Assembly (NCBI GenBank): GCA_963383645.1 | Contig: OY726569.1 | Location: 32,279,592-32,343,591, forward strand | From: Muscardinus avellanarius | Taxonomy: Eukaryota > Chordata > Mammalia > Rodentia > Gliridae | Reading direction: 5' to 3' | Length of the DNA stretch: 64,000 nucleotides | In this document: positions 11,045-48,250 of the stretch, in pieces | How positions within the stretch are numbered: the stretch's first letter is position 1 | Layout of the letters: each line of letters opens with the position of its first letter | Position numbers and translations under genes: made by a program | The notes under the pieces: generated by a model | What the model saw: only the letters and a program-made list of their open reading frames with translations | Told to the model about the DNA's origin: nothing | Databases searched by the model: none

Positions 11045-11215
11045 CCTTGCAAGAAGATGGAAGGAACTAGAGAACATTATGTTAAGTGAGATTAGTCAAG
11101 CACAGAAAGAGAAGGGACATATGTTTTCTCTAATATGTTCAAGCTAGGGAGTAATGGTAATACCAGAGGGATTCCAGATGATGGAGGGAAAATCTCAGCA
11201 AAGCTTGAACAGAAG
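11045..11215 (+). mobile_element. L1 ORF2 end / 3'UTR fragment
   Basis: 'gaactagagaacattatgttaagtgagattagtcaagc' style text followed by 'catatgttttctctaatatg' is the same L1 section as at 5155-5225 and 17870-17920 in this window. Confidence 0.72.
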
Positions 11216-17595: not shown

Positions 17596-17833
17596 ATCAA
17601 AGATTATTAAAGATTTAAATTTCTGTTTGGTTAGGCTTACTTGGTAAAAGATACCACAGAAAAGTCTATCTTCTTTATTGAAGTACTTTTGTACTAAGTG
17701 CTAAAAAACTCAAGTGGTAAGGGATATGCAAATGACGTGAACCACATACTCTGGAAAGGTGATAGATGCCGAGGTTGGTACCACAGAGATGAGAACACTG
17801 AGCCTCGCTTAGTGAACAACATTTGCTCAGCTT

Positions 17834-18228
17834 AGCTATAAAGGAGAACAAAATTATGGAATCTACAGGGAAATGTCACAAAAATAAGAAATCAGATGCT
17901 TTCCCTAATATGTGAAAACTAGGGAGAAATGGGTAATAGGAGGGCCACTAGTTGAAGAAGGGACTCTATAGAGGAGCAATTAAGGTGACCTATTTGTGGG
18001 GATGGGAGGGGGGGAAGATGGAAAGTCTTTAAAGCACATGATATACTTAAACATATCAAAGTCAATCACTAAATCAAGCATGGGAATGAGGGAAGGGGAG
18101 GGAATGGGGTGGGGATTGGAAAAAGGCTAATTGGGTGATGTGTGCATGTATATCTCCACAAGTTTTTTTATTCCATTAAGATGTTTGACTATAATGCACC
18201 AATAAAAATATATTAAAAAGAAAAAAAC
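17834..18228 (+). mobile_element. L1 3' end, 5'-truncated, young-type 3'UTR
   Basis: Starts in the last part of ORF2 ('aaaggagaacaaaattatgg'), passes 'atgctttccctaatatgtga', the G-rich 3'UTR ('gaatggggtggggattgg') and ends 'aatgcaccaataaaaatata'. Relative to the copy at 5116-5225 it lacks about 40 bp just after 'cagggaaat'. A SINE has landed directly in its poly-A tail. Confidence 0.9.
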
Positions 18229-18459
18229 GCCGGGCATGGTGGCGCATGCTTACAATCCCAGTACTTGGGAGTCTGAGACTGGAGGATTGCACAGGATGGA
18301 AGCCACCCTCAACTACTTAGTGAGGCTCTCAGCAACTTAGTGAGACTTGTTTCCAAATAAAATACAAAATAGGTCTGGAAGTGTAGCCCACAGGTAAAAA
18401 AGTCTCTGGGTTCCATCCCACCACCACAAAAAAACAAAAAAACAAAAAAAAAAAAAAAG
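18229..18459 (+). mobile_element. B1-dID SINE inserted in the L1 tail
   Basis: Head 'cgccgggcatggtggcgcat', 'caactacttagtgaggctct', linker 'ccaaataaaatacaaaatag', ID half 'ctggaagtgtagcccacagg', then a (CAAAAAA)n tail. Its middle is of the older type but its ID half already reads like the young one, so it may be intermediate. Confidence 0.9.
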
Positions 18460-19967: not shown

Positions 19968-20063
19968 TGTGGTGGTGGGGGGGGGGAGTACTGGGAATTA
20001 AAGGTAGAGGTGTCCACCACTGAGCTACATCCCTGGCTTTTTATTTTATTTATTTATTTATTT

Positions 20064-20252
20064 TGGTGGTACTGGGGTTCCTGGAAACTCTTCTACCTCC
20101 AGGCTACACTCCCAGACCCATTTTTTTAAATATATTTTTATTTGGAAACAGGCTCTCTTAAGCCAGCAAAGCTGGCTTCAAACCTGCACAATCCTCCTGT
20201 CTCTGCCTCCCAAGCGAGGGGATTACAAGCGTGGGCCAACACGCCCAGCCTC
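20064..20252 (-). mobile_element. Young B1-dID SINE, antisense, nest member 1
   Basis: 'ggtggtactggggttcctgg', inverted ID 'ccaggctacactcccagacc', 'ggctctcttaagccagcaaa' and head 'caacacgcccagcc'. The short repeat 'catccctgnctttttattta' recurs at 20029 and 20253, as expected for its TSD. Confidence 0.9.
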
Positions 20253-20325
20253 ATCCCTGTCTTTTTATTTATTTGTTATTTATTTATTTATTATTTATTT
20301 ATGTATTTTTATTTATTTATTTTGT

Positions 20326-20519
20326 GTGAGTGTGTGGTGGTCCTGGGGTTCATGTAAAGCCTTCCATATCCGGGCTACACTCCCAGACACCTATTTTTTA
20401 TATCTTTATTTGGAAACAGGGTCTCTTAAACCAGCAAGGCTAGCTTCAAACCTGTGTGATCCTCCTGTCTCCTCCTCCCAAGCGCAGGGATTACAAGTGA
20501 GCACTACCACGCCTGGCAT
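20326..20519 (-). mobile_element. Young B1-dID SINE, antisense, nest member 2
   Basis: 'gtggtcctggggttcatgta', inverted ID 'ccgggctacactcccagaca', 'ggtctcttaaaccagcaagg', head 'actaccacgcctgg'. 'catccctgtcttttta' at its left and 'catccctgcctttta' at its right form the TSD, so it reused the duplicated target of nest member 1. Confidence 0.88.
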
Positions 20520-20547
20520 CCCTGCCTTTTAAAAACACCTTCTAAAC

Positions 20548-20730
20548 CGGGCGTGGTGGCGCACGCTTGTAATCCCACACTTGGGAGGCAGAGACAGGAG
20601 GATCGCACAGGTTCAAAGCCAGCCGCGTGCGCTGGCTTAGGAGACCCTGTTTCCAAATAAAAATGTAAAAATGGGTCTGGGAGTGTAGCCCGGAGGTAGA
20701 AGGGCTTCCAGGAACCCCAGTACCACCAAA

Positions 20731-20773
<43 letters not shown>

Positions 20774-20785
20774 AATATTTTAAAA
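20548..20785 (+). mobile_element. Young B1-dID SINE, sense, nest member 3
   Basis: Head 'accgggcgtggtggcgcacg', 'agccagccgcgtgcgctggc', ID half 'tctgggagtgtagcccggag', then an (AAAT)n tail (20728-20774). 'aaaaacaccttct' flanks it on both sides (20532-20544 and 20797-20809). It is opposite in orientation to the other three. Confidence 0.92.
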
Positions 20786-20939
20786 AATAAAAATAAAAAC
20801 ACCTTCTGTTTTGAGACAGGGTTGCACTAAGTTACCAGGGCTGGCATCAAACCTGCGATCCTCCTGTTTCAGATTCCCAAGAAGCTGAGATTTTCAGGCA
20901 TGATCCACCATGCCCAGCAGTAATGGTGACTTTAAGTAC

Positions 20940-30477: not shown

Positions 30478-30712
30478 ACATTTTCTCTTATTCTGGCTTT
30501 ATTTTTTAGAGCAGTTTTATGTTCACAGCAAAATTGAACAGAAGGTACAGAGATCCCCATCTAAGTCCTGCCCCTACACATGCCTAGCTCACATAAAACC
30601 CCCACCAGAGTGTCTCATTTGTAACAGTTGATCAACCCAAATCAACACATCATAATTGCTCAAAGCTCATAGTATACCTGACATTTACCATAATTTATTT
30701 TTAAAAAACGTA
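30478..30712 (-). mobile_element. Old L1 (L1MB-like) 3'UTR relic, antisense
   Basis: 'agagcagttttatgttcacagc', 'ggtacagagatccccatcta', 'tgcccctacacatgccta', 'ccaccagagtgtctcatt' follow the inverse of an old mammalian L1 3'UTR in unbroken order. The following portion of the same consensus appears at 63835-64000, but as a separate copy. Confidence 0.72.
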
Positions 30713-30869
30713 AGATTATAACTAGAGTTAAGAACACATAGCATATTTTCTTAAACTGAATTTCCAGAAAATACAGTGAAAAATATAAAATTGGGCTTTA
30801 GACTCAAGCAAACCATGTTTCACCAAACAGATCTTACATTTTGCTTCTGGAAGAAAAAAAAAGTGGGGA

Positions 30870-30884
30870 AAATAGCATACAAAA
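30870..30884. repeat. 5' TSD of the composite retrotransposon
   Basis: aaatagcatacaaaa, repeated without mismatch at 32792-32806. The insertion point lies at a run of G then A (gggg/aaaa), compatible with an L1-type endonuclease nick at TTTT on the other strand. Confidence 0.92.
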
Positions 30885-30896
30885 GGAGCTGGCAAG

Positions 30897-31544
30897 ATGA
30901 CGGTGGCCAAGGTCACAGTGGCAACCACGGCCGCCAAAAAAAAACATGCATTCCTTGGAGAAGCCCTGGACAAAAGATTTTGGTTTAATATCGGATTGGG
31001 ACAACTTAAGGAGACACTTCCAGCTGTGACTTCCTATCTAGAATACAGGAGAGAGAGAGTGGATAATGGCAGAATTAGAAGCAAGATGACAACGAGGTGC
31101 TCACCACACAAGAAAAATGATTTTTGGAAGAACATCCCAGAAGGGATTAGAGAAAAGACCACTTCAGCCGTGCATGCTGGGAAACTTTTAACATACCTTG
31201 TAAGGAAAATGATCCAGGCATGTTGGAAGGAGCCCAGTAGTGCTGGGTGGGAAGCCCAGCTGCAAGTCCTGGAGAACTCAGCACACCTGGCTGCCCCACT
31301 CCTCTGTGCTGCGCCAGGGGCTGGGATGTGCTTGGAAGAGCATATCCTGCTTTACATGGTGAGGCTGTGGCCTCTGCTCTTGGAGGGGAGATCAAATTCA
31401 ATGCTGCTGAGTGCTCGATCCCACAACCTCTTCAAAACACACATATTGTCTTCTCTTATTAAAAAATATTGGAGAGGGGTAAGATGGCGGCGGCAGCAGC
31501 CAGGATTCAGGAGATGCAGACAAATCCTATCCAATCCACCTTGA
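30897..31544 (+). CDS. Unrecognised 215-codon open frame in the composite's 5' part
   Basis: Starts with ATG 13 bases into the element, overlapping the first YY1-like site, and ends inside the second monomer. The deduced product is basic, with K/R-rich stretches (residues 13-15 'KKK', a 'WRGVRWRRQQ' segment near the C-terminus) and no domain I recognise. It is not L1 ORF1 by any feature I can see: no coiled-coil heptads and no obvious RRM order. It may be a chance frame in a GC-moderate leader, and low confidence reflects that. Confidence 0.15.
   Translation: MTVAKVTVATTAAKKKHAFLGEALDKRFWFNIGLGQLKETLPAVTSYLEYRRERVDNGRIRSKMTTRCSPHKKNDFWKNIPEGIREKTTSAVHAGKLLTYLVRKMIQACWKEPSSAGWEAQLQVLENSAHLAAPLLCAAPGAGMCLEEHILLYMVRLWPLLLEGRSNSMLLSARSHNLFKTHILSSLIKKYWRGVRWRRQQPGFRRCRQILSNPP
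31481..31491 (+). promoter_or_regulatory. YY1-type site AAGATGGCGGC
   Basis: An exact match to the YY1 core as found near the start of primate L1 5'UTRs, where it positions transcription initiation. Degenerate relatives lie at 30894 (aagatgacggt), 31083 (aagatgacaac) and about 31648. Its placement at the head of a monomer supports the L1 5'UTR-like reading. Confidence 0.7.
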
Positions 31545-31805
31545 ACTTTTGAAAAAAAATCTCCGCAAAGGGGGACTGCTCCTGCCGCACATGCTTAGGA
31601 ATTCTGGACATCATACCATGTAAGGAAAGTGCTCAGTGGAGAACCAGAAGGATGGGGCAGCAGCAGGGGTGGCGGCCAGTATTGGAAGAGGCAGAGATCC
31701 TATCCAATCCACCTTGAACTTTTGAAGAAATCTCCCCAAAGGTAGACTGCTACCGCCATGCATGCTCAGGAATTCTGGACAATATGCTATATGGGAAAGT
31801 TGTTT
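31481..31805 (+). repeat. Two tandem 5' monomers, period about 173 bp
   Basis: 'tcctatccaatccacctt' at 31525 recurs at 31698, and 'aggaattctggaca' follows in both. A third, more diverged copy ends near 31205 ('gtgcatgctgggaaac', 'ccttgtaaggaaaatga'). The arrangement recalls monomeric 5'UTRs of murine L1. Confidence 0.82.
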
Positions 31806-31947
31806 GGTTCGAAGCTAGCCTCGCTGGCTTAAGAGACCCTGTCCTCAAATAAAAATATATATAAAAAAAATGGACTCTGGGAGTGTAGTCCGGAGGTAGA
31901 AGGGCTATAGAAGTTACCACCAAAAAAAAAAAAAAAAAAAAAAAAAG
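31806..31947 (+). mobile_element. 5'-truncated young B1-dID SINE inside the composite
   Basis: Begins 'ggttcgaagctagcctcgct', continues with 'ggcttaagagaccctg' and ID half 'ctgggagtgtagtccggagg', and ends in A26. The left part of B1 is missing. I find no convincing TSD of its own (only 'gggaaagttg' against 'gggaacatct'), which favours its being a structural part of the composite, but this is not proven. Confidence 0.85.
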
Positions 31948-31989
31948 GAAGAAAAAAGGGAACATCTGTAGACAACCTGCTTGCAGTGA

Positions 31990-32420
31990 CAGAGACCAGA
32001 GCCTGCTGCACAGCAAGACTTGTGCCGGGGCCTCTGAGGCCAGGATAGGAGCCTGCGACACGGCGAGGCAGGTGTCAAGGCCAGTGAGGCTGGGATCAGA
32101 GCCTGCCATAAGTCCAGGCCGGTGTTGGGGCTTTTGAGACCAGGATCAGAGGCTGCCAAGTTGTGAGGCCGATGCCAGGGCCAGTGTGGCCAGAATCGGA
32201 GCCTGCCATGAGGCCAGGCCAGTGTCGGGGCCACAGAGGCCAAAATTGGAGCCTGCGGAGGGATGAGACTGGTGCTGGGGCCAGCAAGGCCAGGATCGGA
32301 GCCTGCCATGAGGTATGAGGCCTGTGCTGAGGCCTCCAAGGCTGGGATTGGATCCTGCCAAGGGGTGAGGCCAGTGCTGGAGTCTTTGAGAGTGGGATCG
32401 GAGGCTGTAATGAGGCATCC
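31990..32420 (+). repeat. GC-rich VNTR, exact 50-bp period, about 8.5 units
   Basis: The word 'gcctgc' (or one mismatch) falls at 32001, 32051, 32101, 32151, 32201, 32251, 32301, 32353 and 32403. Each unit contains 'gaggcc', 'gtgtcgggg' and 'ccaggatcgga' variants. Spacing is exactly 50 apart from one 52-bp step caused by a 2-bp insertion in 'atgaggtatgagg'. The minus strand has few stops, so three overlapping minus frames of 112-141 codons run through it. These are by-products of the repeat. Confidence 0.95.
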
Positions 32421-32421
32421 A

Positions 32422-32791
32422 CTGAAAAAATCACAGAAAATAAAAATTCAGATGCTTTCCCTAATATGCAAAAAATAGGAAGAAATGGGTAATAGGAGGA
32501 AATCTACTTGAAGAAAGGGCCCTATGGAGGAGCAATTAAGGTGACCTATCAGAGGAGATGGGATGGGGGAAGAAGGAATCTCTTTAAAGCACATGATGTA
32601 TGTAGACAAATATATCAAAGTCAATCACTAAATTAAGCATGGGATAGAGGAAGGGGGAGCAAATGGGATGGGGATTGGATAAAGGCTAATTGGATGATGT
32701 GTGCTTGGATATATTCACAAGTCTTGTATTCCATTGAGATGTTTGACTACAATGCACCAATAAAATATATTAAATAAAAATAAAAATAAAT
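32422..32791 (+). mobile_element. L1-derived 3' module of the composite
   Basis: Colinear with the L1 3' ends at 17834-18228 and 47902-48235: 'agatgctttccctaatatg', 'gaagaaatgggtaatagg', 'gcacatgatgta', 'gatggggattggataaagg', 'ttgactacaatgcaccaat'. It would supply the 3' end recognised by the L1 machinery. Confidence 0.92.
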
Positions 32792-32806
32792 AAATAGCAT
32801 ACAAAA
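32792..32806. repeat. 3' TSD of the composite retrotransposon
   Basis: Exact copy of 30870-30884, directly following the A-rich tail. Confidence 0.92.
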
Positions 32807-35005
32807 ATTTAAAAAGTGGGTAGCTTCATTATTTGACATTTTTTAAGAATCATAAAAAGTAGAACCAAAAGAAAATATTTTGATTAACTTCCTAGTAACC
32901 AAAATTATCAGTTAAAACTATTTTCATTTGGATGGATAGAAAGGGAAATAAAAAAGAGAGAATAAAAACCGGATGTGCCAGCTTCATTTGCATTTTGTCC
33001 TCTTTGATTTGAAACATAAATAGGCTCCAACATATTAACTCACACCCTTGCACCCTTGCTGTTTGAGCTTTCCTGAAGCCTAGAGGAGACAAGAACCAGG
33101 ATTCAGCTGGGACTCACTTCTGTGAGGTCTGAGCAATTCACATACAACAAGCATTCAGGAAAAGACAGAGAGATCTATTTCCCCATCAATTGCCAGGGGC
33201 ATTGGCAGATTCTTCCTACTGCCAGCAGGACCACCAGAATCCCTGAGAAGTCCCACTTAATTAAGATATTAGCTCCTAACATCCTGAAGAAAGCTTTCTA
33301 AATTCATATGTTCTGAGTGAAATGGAGATTTCCCACTCCCTTTTGTGTATATCAACCTGCACTGTGTAAAGTGTCAGCTCATCCTAGCTAACTTTGTTAG
33401 AGGGAGGACCAATAACAACATTCAGTTGATTATAAAAGAAAAGGGAAGAGACTCTGAGTGATTATAGAATTCTTATAATGTGCATAGTGTTATTATGGCA
33501 CTCTGCCCAGGGCTCATCAAAGATAAATGAGGTTTGAAGAGTGGTTTTTTTATGTTAAACTTAATAGACATTCCCTTTCTTTCTTAAAAAAAAAAAATCT
33601 GGCAAGGGAATGGAAAAGACATCAAAGCAATTTTCCTATAAATCTATACAGAAATGAATTTTAGAGTCAACTTTTCTGCTTTTATTACTTATTTTTTATT
33701 TTTTGGAAGCTGAAAGAGACCATAATTCAGTGCCTTTCAAAGTGCTTTGGAGAAATATAATAAATCCAATATATATGAAAAAGTTTATAGGGTTTTTTTA
33801 CCAAATATATAAGACTGAAATATTTCTCTGATATTAAGAATGTTTCTAAAACTTTTTCTTCAGAATTTTTCATACATATCTCACTAAATTTTCTTGACAC
33901 TTAGTAATTTATAATTCTGAAGTCCAATGACAGGAGACAAGGTTTAATATTTTGTCTTTAAGAAGCTATTGTCTCTTCCAAACTGCTATTCCTAAAAATC
34001 CCCATTCAAACTTTATAATACAATAACAATTTCTCATTTCAGTTCCTATGGCTAAGAATTTTGATGGGAAGTAGAAGGGGGATAGTGTCCATTAATATTG
34101 CAACATCAGCCTCTGAATGTGCTCCTTGTGTGTGAAATTATATTTTTATGACACTTCTCTGGTTTTGTTTGAATCAGCTCAATTGAAAATCATCTTGAAC
34201 CCAATTTTTATCCAGTAACTGCCTCTCAATACACATTACCCTTATAACTGTTAAAGATTTGTTGGTTCAGCTTTTCAGGCAAGGCTATTTGAATGCACAA
34301 GAGAGTTGCCAGAGTGTACTTAGGACTACGTCAAAGTTAAACAAATTCAAAGTTGCCTAGTTCCATCCATCGTTAAGTCTTCTTTACAAAACCAATAGTG
34401 GAAGAGAAAGTTCAAGTTCACAGTCCCAAGGAAAAGGTATTTAGCACCAGTAACATAACACTACTATCAAACTATTAAACCAAAGTTATTGTGGATTCCA
34501 AGGCCTAGATGACTTCTTCTGATCTGGGAATCTTATAGTCCTAATTTTTCCCAGGACTAAGTGCTGGGTCCGTTTCATTATAAATGGCTCACTACATATA
34601 ACAGTTAATACTAATCACCTAACACATATAATCGACACCAAATATTATCCCAAAGATGTTGTTAGTATGACTGGAAAAAGCCTGGGCCAGAGACTGATAT
34701 TTCCCCAGATTTTCTTCATTTACCTAAATTTAAATTGCCTTACAAAGTGGAAGGTGGGAATTAATAGACATTGGCAAGAACATAGTAAAACTCCAGTGCT
34801 TTATATCGGATACCAAATCATTAGCACAGCAAGGAAAACTTTAAATAGGTGTTAAGGAATTGAAAAGCATTTACCCCTTTGAAAGTCAACCTCCTCTAAA
34901 TGTGCAGAACAAAGTTGGCAGCCATTCAGTGACGCTAATAGTATTGAAACTATCCCAAATTTAGAAGACTACTGCAGATGTGGCTAAACAGGATCCTTCC
35001 CTATG
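32807..35005. other. Unique AT-rich sequence, 2.2 kb
   Basis: No repeat, RNA gene or exon recognised. Confidence 0.45.
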
Positions 35006-47886: not shown

Positions 47887-47901
47887 GAAAAGCTTTCTCT
47901 G
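47887..47901. repeat. 5' TSD of L1 at 47902
   Basis: gaaaagctttctctg here and gaaaagctttccctg at 48236-48250, one mismatch in 15. Confidence 0.88.
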
Positions 47902-48235
47902 AATCAGATGCTTTCCCTAATACGTGAAAGCTAAGGAGAAATGGGTCATAGGAGGAACTCTAGATGAAAAAGGAAATCCTACAGGTGAGCAAACAAGACA
48001 ACCTAAATGAGGATATGGGAGGGGGCAAGAAGGAACTTCTCTAAAACACGCAGTGTACTTAAACATATCGAAGTCAACCACTAAGACAAGCAAGGGAAGG
48101 AGGGATGGGGAGGGAATGGGGTGGGAATTGGGTAGGGGTTAGATTGGTGATGTGTACATGTATGTACACACAAGTGTTTTTTTTTTACCCCAATATGATA
48201 TATGAATATAATGCACCAATAAAAAATTAAAAAAA
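47902..48235 (+). mobile_element. 5'-truncated L1, 334 bp, with TSD
   Basis: Starts exactly at 'aatcagatgctttccctaat', carries the whole G-rich 3'UTR ('gaatggggtgggaattgggt') and ends 'aatgcaccaataaaaaatta'. The near-perfect TSD defines it as one insertion. Confidence 0.92.
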
Positions 48236-48250
48236 GAAAAGCTTTCCCTG

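What the first reader, a model, noticed from the sequence alone, without database searches (positions are those of the whole stretch)
30870..32806. SVA-like composite retrotransposon built from rodent parts
A single insertion (perfect 15-bp TSD aaatagcatacaaaa on both sides) contains an L1-5'UTR-like leader with YY1-type sites, a same-sense truncated young SINE, a 50-bp VNTR and an L1 3' end, with no L1 coding sequence. SVA and LAVA are the known elements with SINE plus VNTR plus L1-dependent mobility, and they are confined to apes. I know of no described rodent counterpart with this plan, though I cannot search. It may be a new non-autonomous family mobilised by L1 in trans.
Basis: partly seen in the sequence, partly recalled or inferred. 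Interest (0 to 1): 0.9.

Follow-up and report, generated by a model that had tools for sequence, protein, structure and literature searches.

The report
L1-type composite insertion, family status unknown
A single piece of jumping DNA in a rodent-like genome is stitched from a LINE-1-type front end, a SINE fragment, a 50-base tandem array and a LINE-1 tail; it resembles the ape elements SVA and LAVA in plan, but only one copy could be examined, so it may be either a new family or a one-off damaged LINE-1.

Summary
The anatomy reported is really there. Window 30870-32806 is bounded by an exact 15-nt duplication found nowhere else in the window. Between the copies lie, in one sense: a leader with two 79%-identical monomers and one exact YY1-type site; a 5'-truncated SINE of the window's most homogeneous SINE group; eight and a half diverged ~50-nt GC-rich units; and an L1 3' end with a tail. 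Corrections: the L1 part keeps about the last 15 codons of ORF2 plus the stop; that the leader is an L1 5'UTR is inferred, not shown. The SINE has no detectable target-site duplication of its own, which speaks against later nesting. The decisive test, other copies and full-length L1s of the same genome, could not be run: 23 of 23 genome-search requests did not complete (last). The insertion was most likely copied by L1 proteins from an RNA already lacking the ORFs (0.6). Whether it is a propagating SVA/LAVA-like family (about 0.33) or a one-off deleted, spliced or chimeric L1 (about 0.5) is open. In design it resembles LAVA; it is not a member of the ape VNTR-composite families.

The parts
30870..30884 (+). 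5' target-site duplication AAATAGCATACAAAA
   Evidence: exact 15-nt match to 32792-32806, only copies in window; preceded by GGGGA, i.e. bottom-strand TTTT before the nick, compatible with L1 endonuclease (read)
30885..31470 (+). leader, first part: begins GGAGCTGGCAAGATGACGG, contains a divergent monomer-like stretch at 31122-31247
   Evidence: local alignment to the monomers, scores 51 and 52 against maxima of 30 and 46 in 200 shuffles each; two other comparisons (30885-31078, 31215-31470) stayed within their shuffles; no convincing other copy in window (best outside hit E 0.47)
30897..31544 (+). open frame of 215 codons plus stop from the first ATG of the element; probably not a protein
   Evidence: 5 of 2000 dinucleotide shuffles of the leader have as long a frame, 38 of 2000 for the whole element; no codon-position GC bias; no Pfam family, no homolog at E up to 1, best PDB match E 0.94
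31471..31805 (+). two tandem promoter-type monomers (31496-31630 and 31672-31800); YY1-type site AAGATGGCGGC at 31481 before the first, not kept exactly before the second
   Evidence: 79% identity; site unique in window
31806..31946 (+). 5'-truncated SINE, starts at GGTTCGAAG, ends in 25 A
   Evidence: BLAST to window SINEs, group alignment, 7 of 103 mismatches to consensus and no own TSD (best flank match 9 of 11, 91 of 300 shuffles as good)
31984..32417 (+). tandem array, eight full units of 50-52 nt and part of a ninth, about 61% GC
   Evidence: Tandem Repeats Finder and self-repeats, unit layout and GC of 31961-32425, mean unit identity 67%
32418..32478 (+). tail end of L1 ORF2; the secure part is the last 15 codons and TAG (32431-32478)
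   Evidence: frame; homology to 17877 on and to 11101-11188; the latter's upstream frame hits the LINE-1 ORF2p C-terminus
32479..32791 (+). L1 3'UTR with AATAAA words and an A-rich, interrupted tail
   Evidence: 84%, 73% and 72% identity to three other L1 3' ends in the window
32792..32806 (+). 3' target-site duplication AAATAGCATACAAAA

Best explanation
It is an ORF-less, L1-dependent composite retroelement that was inserted here as one unit. Shown: the TSD, the common sense of all modules, the SINE's membership in a homogeneous group and lack of a detectable TSD of its own, the array, and the L1 ORF2-end/3'UTR/tail. Inferred: a pol II transcript started in the L1-type monomer leader, ran through SINE and array to the L1 3'UTR and poly(A), and was reverse transcribed by L1 ORF2p (in trans, since it codes for neither L1 protein) with target-primed insertion. 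The RNA already lacked ORF1 and nearly all of ORF2. Whether that RNA came from a dispersed composite family or from a single spliced, recombined or deleted L1 is not settled.
For: Exact TSD around the whole and none detectable around the SINE; other L1 3' ends in the window show that the tail is L1; the element begins with an AAGATG-containing leader, tandem monomers and a YY1-type word, as in mouse L1 Tf, whose monomers carry functional YY1 sites (PMC11602158, abstract seen). Array units (67% alike on average) and monomers (79%) are far more diverged from each other than the SINE is from its group consensus (6.8%), so array and monomers probably existed before this insertion.
Against: One copy only. 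No full-length L1 of this genome could be read, so a post-insertion deletion inside an ordinary L1 (about 5 kb by recalled L1 length) gives the same picture. The leader has no aligned L1 5'UTR relative. The sequence after the SINE aligns weakly with the monomer's continuation (29 of 300 shuffles score as high), which would fit a later SINE insertion.
Confidence: 0.6

Rival explanations
1. One-off internally deleted or spliced L1: full-length L1s of this genome have a 5'UTR of leader, monomers, SINE piece and 50-nt array, and this copy lost ORF1 and ORF2, by DNA deletion (before or after insertion) or by splicing before it (as in SpIREs). About 0.15 of the 0.38 is the pre-insertion splicing or deletion form, which overlaps with the best explanation.
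For: The 3' boundary lies inside ORF2, as expected of a deletion or splice; a short GGAG or ATGRGG likeness lies at the array/ORF2 border (alignments). Spliced L1 retrocopies are documented in human (PMC5860796, abstract and passages).
Against: The SpIREs named in that abstract are intra-5'UTR or 5'UTR/ORF1, not 5'UTR to ORF2 end; my motif scan of the element looked for donor-like words only and found none at the array/ORF2 junction (nearest 32365); acceptors were not scanned. No L1 5'UTR with such a SINE and array is known to me (recall).
Confidence: 0.38
2. One-off chimera: reverse transcriptase switched templates between L1, SINE and another RNA during one insertion. (Overlaps with the best explanation, since the RNA templates lacked the ORFs.)
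For: 452 TSD-bounded Alu/L1 chimeras, mostly same-sense, are reported in human (PMC13174262, section 12 read); here the SINE keeps its poly(A) 3' end and lacks its 5' end.
Against: Needs several joins in one event; in that paper most Alus are full-length and lie next to an L1 3' end, whereas here a leader precedes a truncated SINE and an array separates it from the L1 end.
Confidence: 0.12
3. Sequential build-up at this locus: a leader/array/L1-tail element landed first and the young SINE inserted into it later.
For: The SINE belongs to the most homogeneous group of the window; a weak likeness between the monomer's continuation and the sequence after the SINE (score 23, 29 of 300 shuffles as high).
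Against: No detectable TSD around the SINE (91 of 300 shuffles match as well) and the SINE is truncated at its 5' end.
Confidence: 0.08

Closest known systems
LAVA (gibbon L1-Alu-VNTR-Alu)
   Same: Non-autonomous composite with SINE pieces, an array of 36-50 bp units, L1 and Alu fragments at the 3' end and a poly(A) tail; depends on L1 proteins (PMC7353768 background section)
   Different: LAVA starts with (TCTCCC)n and antisense Alu-like pieces; here an L1-type monomer leader and a sense SINE; array units not compared by computation; host not an ape (recall from the SINE type); copy number here unknown
SVA (SINE-R-VNTR-Alu)
   Same: VNTR composite dependent on L1
   Different: No hexamer run, no antisense SINE region; an L1 tail in place of the HERV-K-derived SINE-R
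SpIRE (spliced integrated retrotransposed L1)
   Same: L1 5' part joined to a later L1 part by loss of the sequence between
   Different: [quoted passage not shown] no SINE or VNTR is mentioned in them in what I saw (PMC5860796)
Alu/L1 chimeric insertions
   Same: SINE and L1 in one TSD-bounded insertion, mostly same sense
   Different: No promoter leader or array is described in the section read; most Alus full-length (PMC13174262)

Membership tests
Ape VNTR composites (SVA/LAVA/PVA/FVA) | 5' (TCTCCC)n hexamer and antisense Alu-like region | tested here: not met
   Element begins GGAGCTGGCAAGATGACGG with no hexamer run (read); the SINE is in the sense of the L1 tail
Ape VNTR composites (SVA/LAVA/PVA/FVA) | central array of GC-rich 36-50 nt units | tested here: met
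   eight full units of 50-52 nt and part of a ninth, 61% GC; likeness in plan only, the ape units were not compared
Ape VNTR composites (SVA/LAVA/PVA/FVA) | multi-copy family with shared junctions | not tested
   The genome search unanswered in 23 of 23 requests (last)
L1-mobilised retrocopy | short TSD, A-rich 3' tail, T-rich nick site | tested here: met
   15-nt exact TSD; tail near 32760-32791 and TTTT before the nick, read
L1-mobilised retrocopy | mobilisation by L1 proteins in cells | not testable with these tools
   needs a retrotransposition assay
Autonomous L1 | ORF1 and ORF2 | tested here: not met
   only about the last 15 codons of ORF2; four open frames of the element scanned against Pfam, three without any match and one with a sub-cutoff UPF0640 match, E 0.13
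SpIRE | splice donor and acceptor at the deletion ends | tested here: inconclusive
   donor-like words listed only, none at the junction; no reference L1 to locate the lost sequence

The most novel reading that the evidence does not exclude
An independent, non-primate family of VNTR composite retrotransposons: an L1 promoter leader, a captured SINE, a 50-nt array and an L1 tail, spread by L1 in trans. The ape plan would then have arisen twice from unrelated parts.
Probability: 0.33. Interest if true: 0.85.

Novelty: new variant of a known kind. Interest (0 to 1): 0.45.

Why it matters
[quoted passage not shown] A second, unrelated lineage with a VNTR between a SINE and an L1 tail would suggest that the array is a feature L1 machinery favours, and would allow a comparative test of what the VNTR does. 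If it is instead a deleted L1, the genome's L1s would have a 5'UTR containing a SINE and a minisatellite, a smaller but real surprise for L1 promoter evolution.

Tried and rejected
Genome copy search: 23 requests of the genome search 'own', all with the same query, none answered. Waiting between them used scripts that only slept or slept after computing.

Exact patterns: L1 tail in viral contigs and genome contigs, monomer in genome contigs and viral contigs, array in viral contigs only: 0 matches each. Two open frames as protein queries, the 222-aa leader frame and the 176-177-aa antisense array frame: no hit at E up to 1; the protein database's coverage of rodents was not checked and the third protein search was not used. 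Pfam: one sub-cutoff match, E 0.13, in four frames. PDB for the leader frame: best E 0.94. Rfam: two matches below gathering score in 30600-33100, none in the window at gathering score.

A protein-coding role for the 215-codon frame: long for a leader (5 of 2000 shuffles) but 38 of 2000 for the whole element, no relatives found, no codon-position GC bias; not pursued further.

Squirrel origin: the SINE type suggested it to me (recall), but a recalled sciurid L1 3'-end word and two ID words are absent from the window on both strands, so the host is left as 'rodent-like', itself by recall of the SINE type.

My first SINE divergence (28 of 131, 21%) came from a visibly misaligned 3' end and was replaced by 7 of 103 (6.8%), which scores only aligned positions; gaps, including several in the altered 3' end of the SINE, are not counted. 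A gap-tolerant pairwise check gives 88% mean identity to the 8 group members, the same as among themselves; its local alignments to the 16 other SINEs are short (mean 37 nt) and not comparable (five of the 29 SINE stretches given to that script were left out as shorter than about 130 nt).

Full report
OBSERVATION. The element lies at 30870-32806. Its two 15-nt ends are identical and occur nowhere else in the 64 kb. In 200000 random draws of two 20-nt blocks at about that distance, 11 shared a 15-mer (draws at the window's end were skipped but counted), so chance is a poor explanation. The order in between, all on the + strand, is: leader 30885-31805, SINE 31806-31946, short spacer 31947-31983, array 31984 to about 32417, L1 end about 32418-32791.

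LEADER. Two stretches, 31496-31630 and 31672-31800, are 79% identical, and 31122-31247 is a more distant relative of them (scores 51 and 52 against maxima of 30 and 46 in 200 shuffles each; two further comparisons, of 30885-31078 and of 31215-31470, did not exceed their shuffles). A perfect YY1-type word, AAGATGGCGGC, stands at 31481 and is the only one in the window (the motif is recalled). Tandem monomers with YY1 sites are known from mouse L1 Tf (PMC11602158, abstract). This makes an L1-type promoter likely, but no L1 5'UTR was aligned to it, so it remains an inference.

SINE. Of the 29 window SINE stretches aligned, I picked eight that share a group-specific sequence (words like GCTGGCTTAAGAGACCCTGTTTCC and GGGCTTCCAGGAACCCCAGTACCACC). 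They are 88% alike on average (28 pairs), against 78% for 16 of the other SINEs (120 pairs), so they are probably the younger group. The composite's SINE belongs with them: 88% mean identity (8 pairs), and 7 mismatches to their consensus at 103 aligned positions, gaps not counted. The eight themselves differ from that consensus by 2-16% over the same part. It starts at GGTTCGAAG, inside the full-length sequence. It has no detectable TSD of its own: the best flank match is 9 of 11, equalled in 91 of 300 shuffles.

ARRAY. Tandem Repeats Finder gives a period of 50; eight full units and part of a ninth can be laid out, 67% alike on average (28 pairs of the eight, 52-78%). The array has 61% GC against 37% for the window. 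It is much more diverged inside than the SINE is from its consensus, so it probably existed before the insertion.

L1 END. BLAST finds three other copies in the window at 84, 73 and 72%; a laxer search adds 11101-11188 (67%, E 8e-6) and three weaker matches (E 4e-4 to 0.02) that were not followed. The reading frame SQKIKIQMLSLICKK-stop at 32431-32478 matches the end of ORF2: the relative at 11101-11188 lies at the end of a frame whose only four PDB hits are LINE-1 ORF2p, all at its last residues (E 0.28-0.44, weak singly). Pfam gave nothing for three such short frames, and the 20-residue composite frame itself had no PDB hit. The secure homology begins at about 32431-32436 and fades between there and 32412.

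MECHANISM. Element-wide TSD, tail and T-rich nick site mean L1-type insertion as one unit. The element codes for no L1 protein, so the copying enzyme came from elsewhere if the RNA was already short. I give 0.6 to an RNA that lacked the ORFs before insertion: a propagating family 0.33, splicing or deletion in a single L1 before insertion 0.15, template-switch chimera 0.12. A deletion after insertion has about 0.23, nesting 0.08. These cannot be told apart with one copy; the rival figures in the form overlap with the best explanation in the way just stated.

WHAT IS MISSING. The finding's own test needs the source genome. Viral, prokaryotic and protein collections gave no second copy, which says little about a rodent repeat. 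That the rest of this 64 kb holds no second leader or array (no outside hit better than E 0.47) is also uninformative: a family of a few thousand copies would rarely appear twice.

LITERATURE. Five of the searches asked for such an element: 'squirrel, SVA, retrotransposon, VNTR' (6 of 6 listed), 'composite retrotransposon, rodent, VNTR, SVA' (20 of 132), 'SVA-like, rodent, composite, retrotransposon' (1 of 1), 'LINE-1, non-autonomous, internal tandem repeat, composite, mammal' (12 of 71) and 'VNTR, LINE-1, SINE, chimeric retro, rodent' (15 of 76). No title or abstract start listed there describes a rodent VNTR composite; only open-licence PMC text is held and three of the five listings are partial. 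VNTR composites are described as specific to hominoids (PMC4432496 abstract and passages; PMC7353768 abstract start and background section). Alu/L1 chimeras and possible 5'UTR swaps are described in PMC13174262 (outline, passages and sections 12 and 22 seen). LINE or SINE quiescence in the ground squirrel is cited in PMC5857283 (passage), but the host here is not identified.

VERDICT. A real and unusual composite insertion, better documented now than as reported, working on paper like LAVA, not a member of the ape families, and undecided between a new family and a one-off L1 derivative.

Noticed in passing
47887-48250: A solo L1 3' end flanked by a 14-of-15 direct repeat (GAAAAGCTTTCTCTG / GAAAAGCTTTCCCTG, read) starts within a few dozen bases of the composite's ORF2/3'UTR boundary; possibly a preferred 5' stop, possibly coincidence.
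   Followed up: partly
30876-31544: Longest stop-to-stop frame listed for the window (222 codons) holds the element's first ATG at 30897; no relatives found.
   Followed up: partly
20048-20923: Cluster of four SINEs in under 1 kb, three of them of the younger group.
   Followed up: no
17810-18440: L1 3' end with a SINE not of the younger group inserted right in its A-tail.
   Followed up: no
11054-11188: End of an L1 ORF2 frame; the match to the composite's L1 tail stops at about 11188, so it may mark a different L1 lineage.
   Followed up: partly
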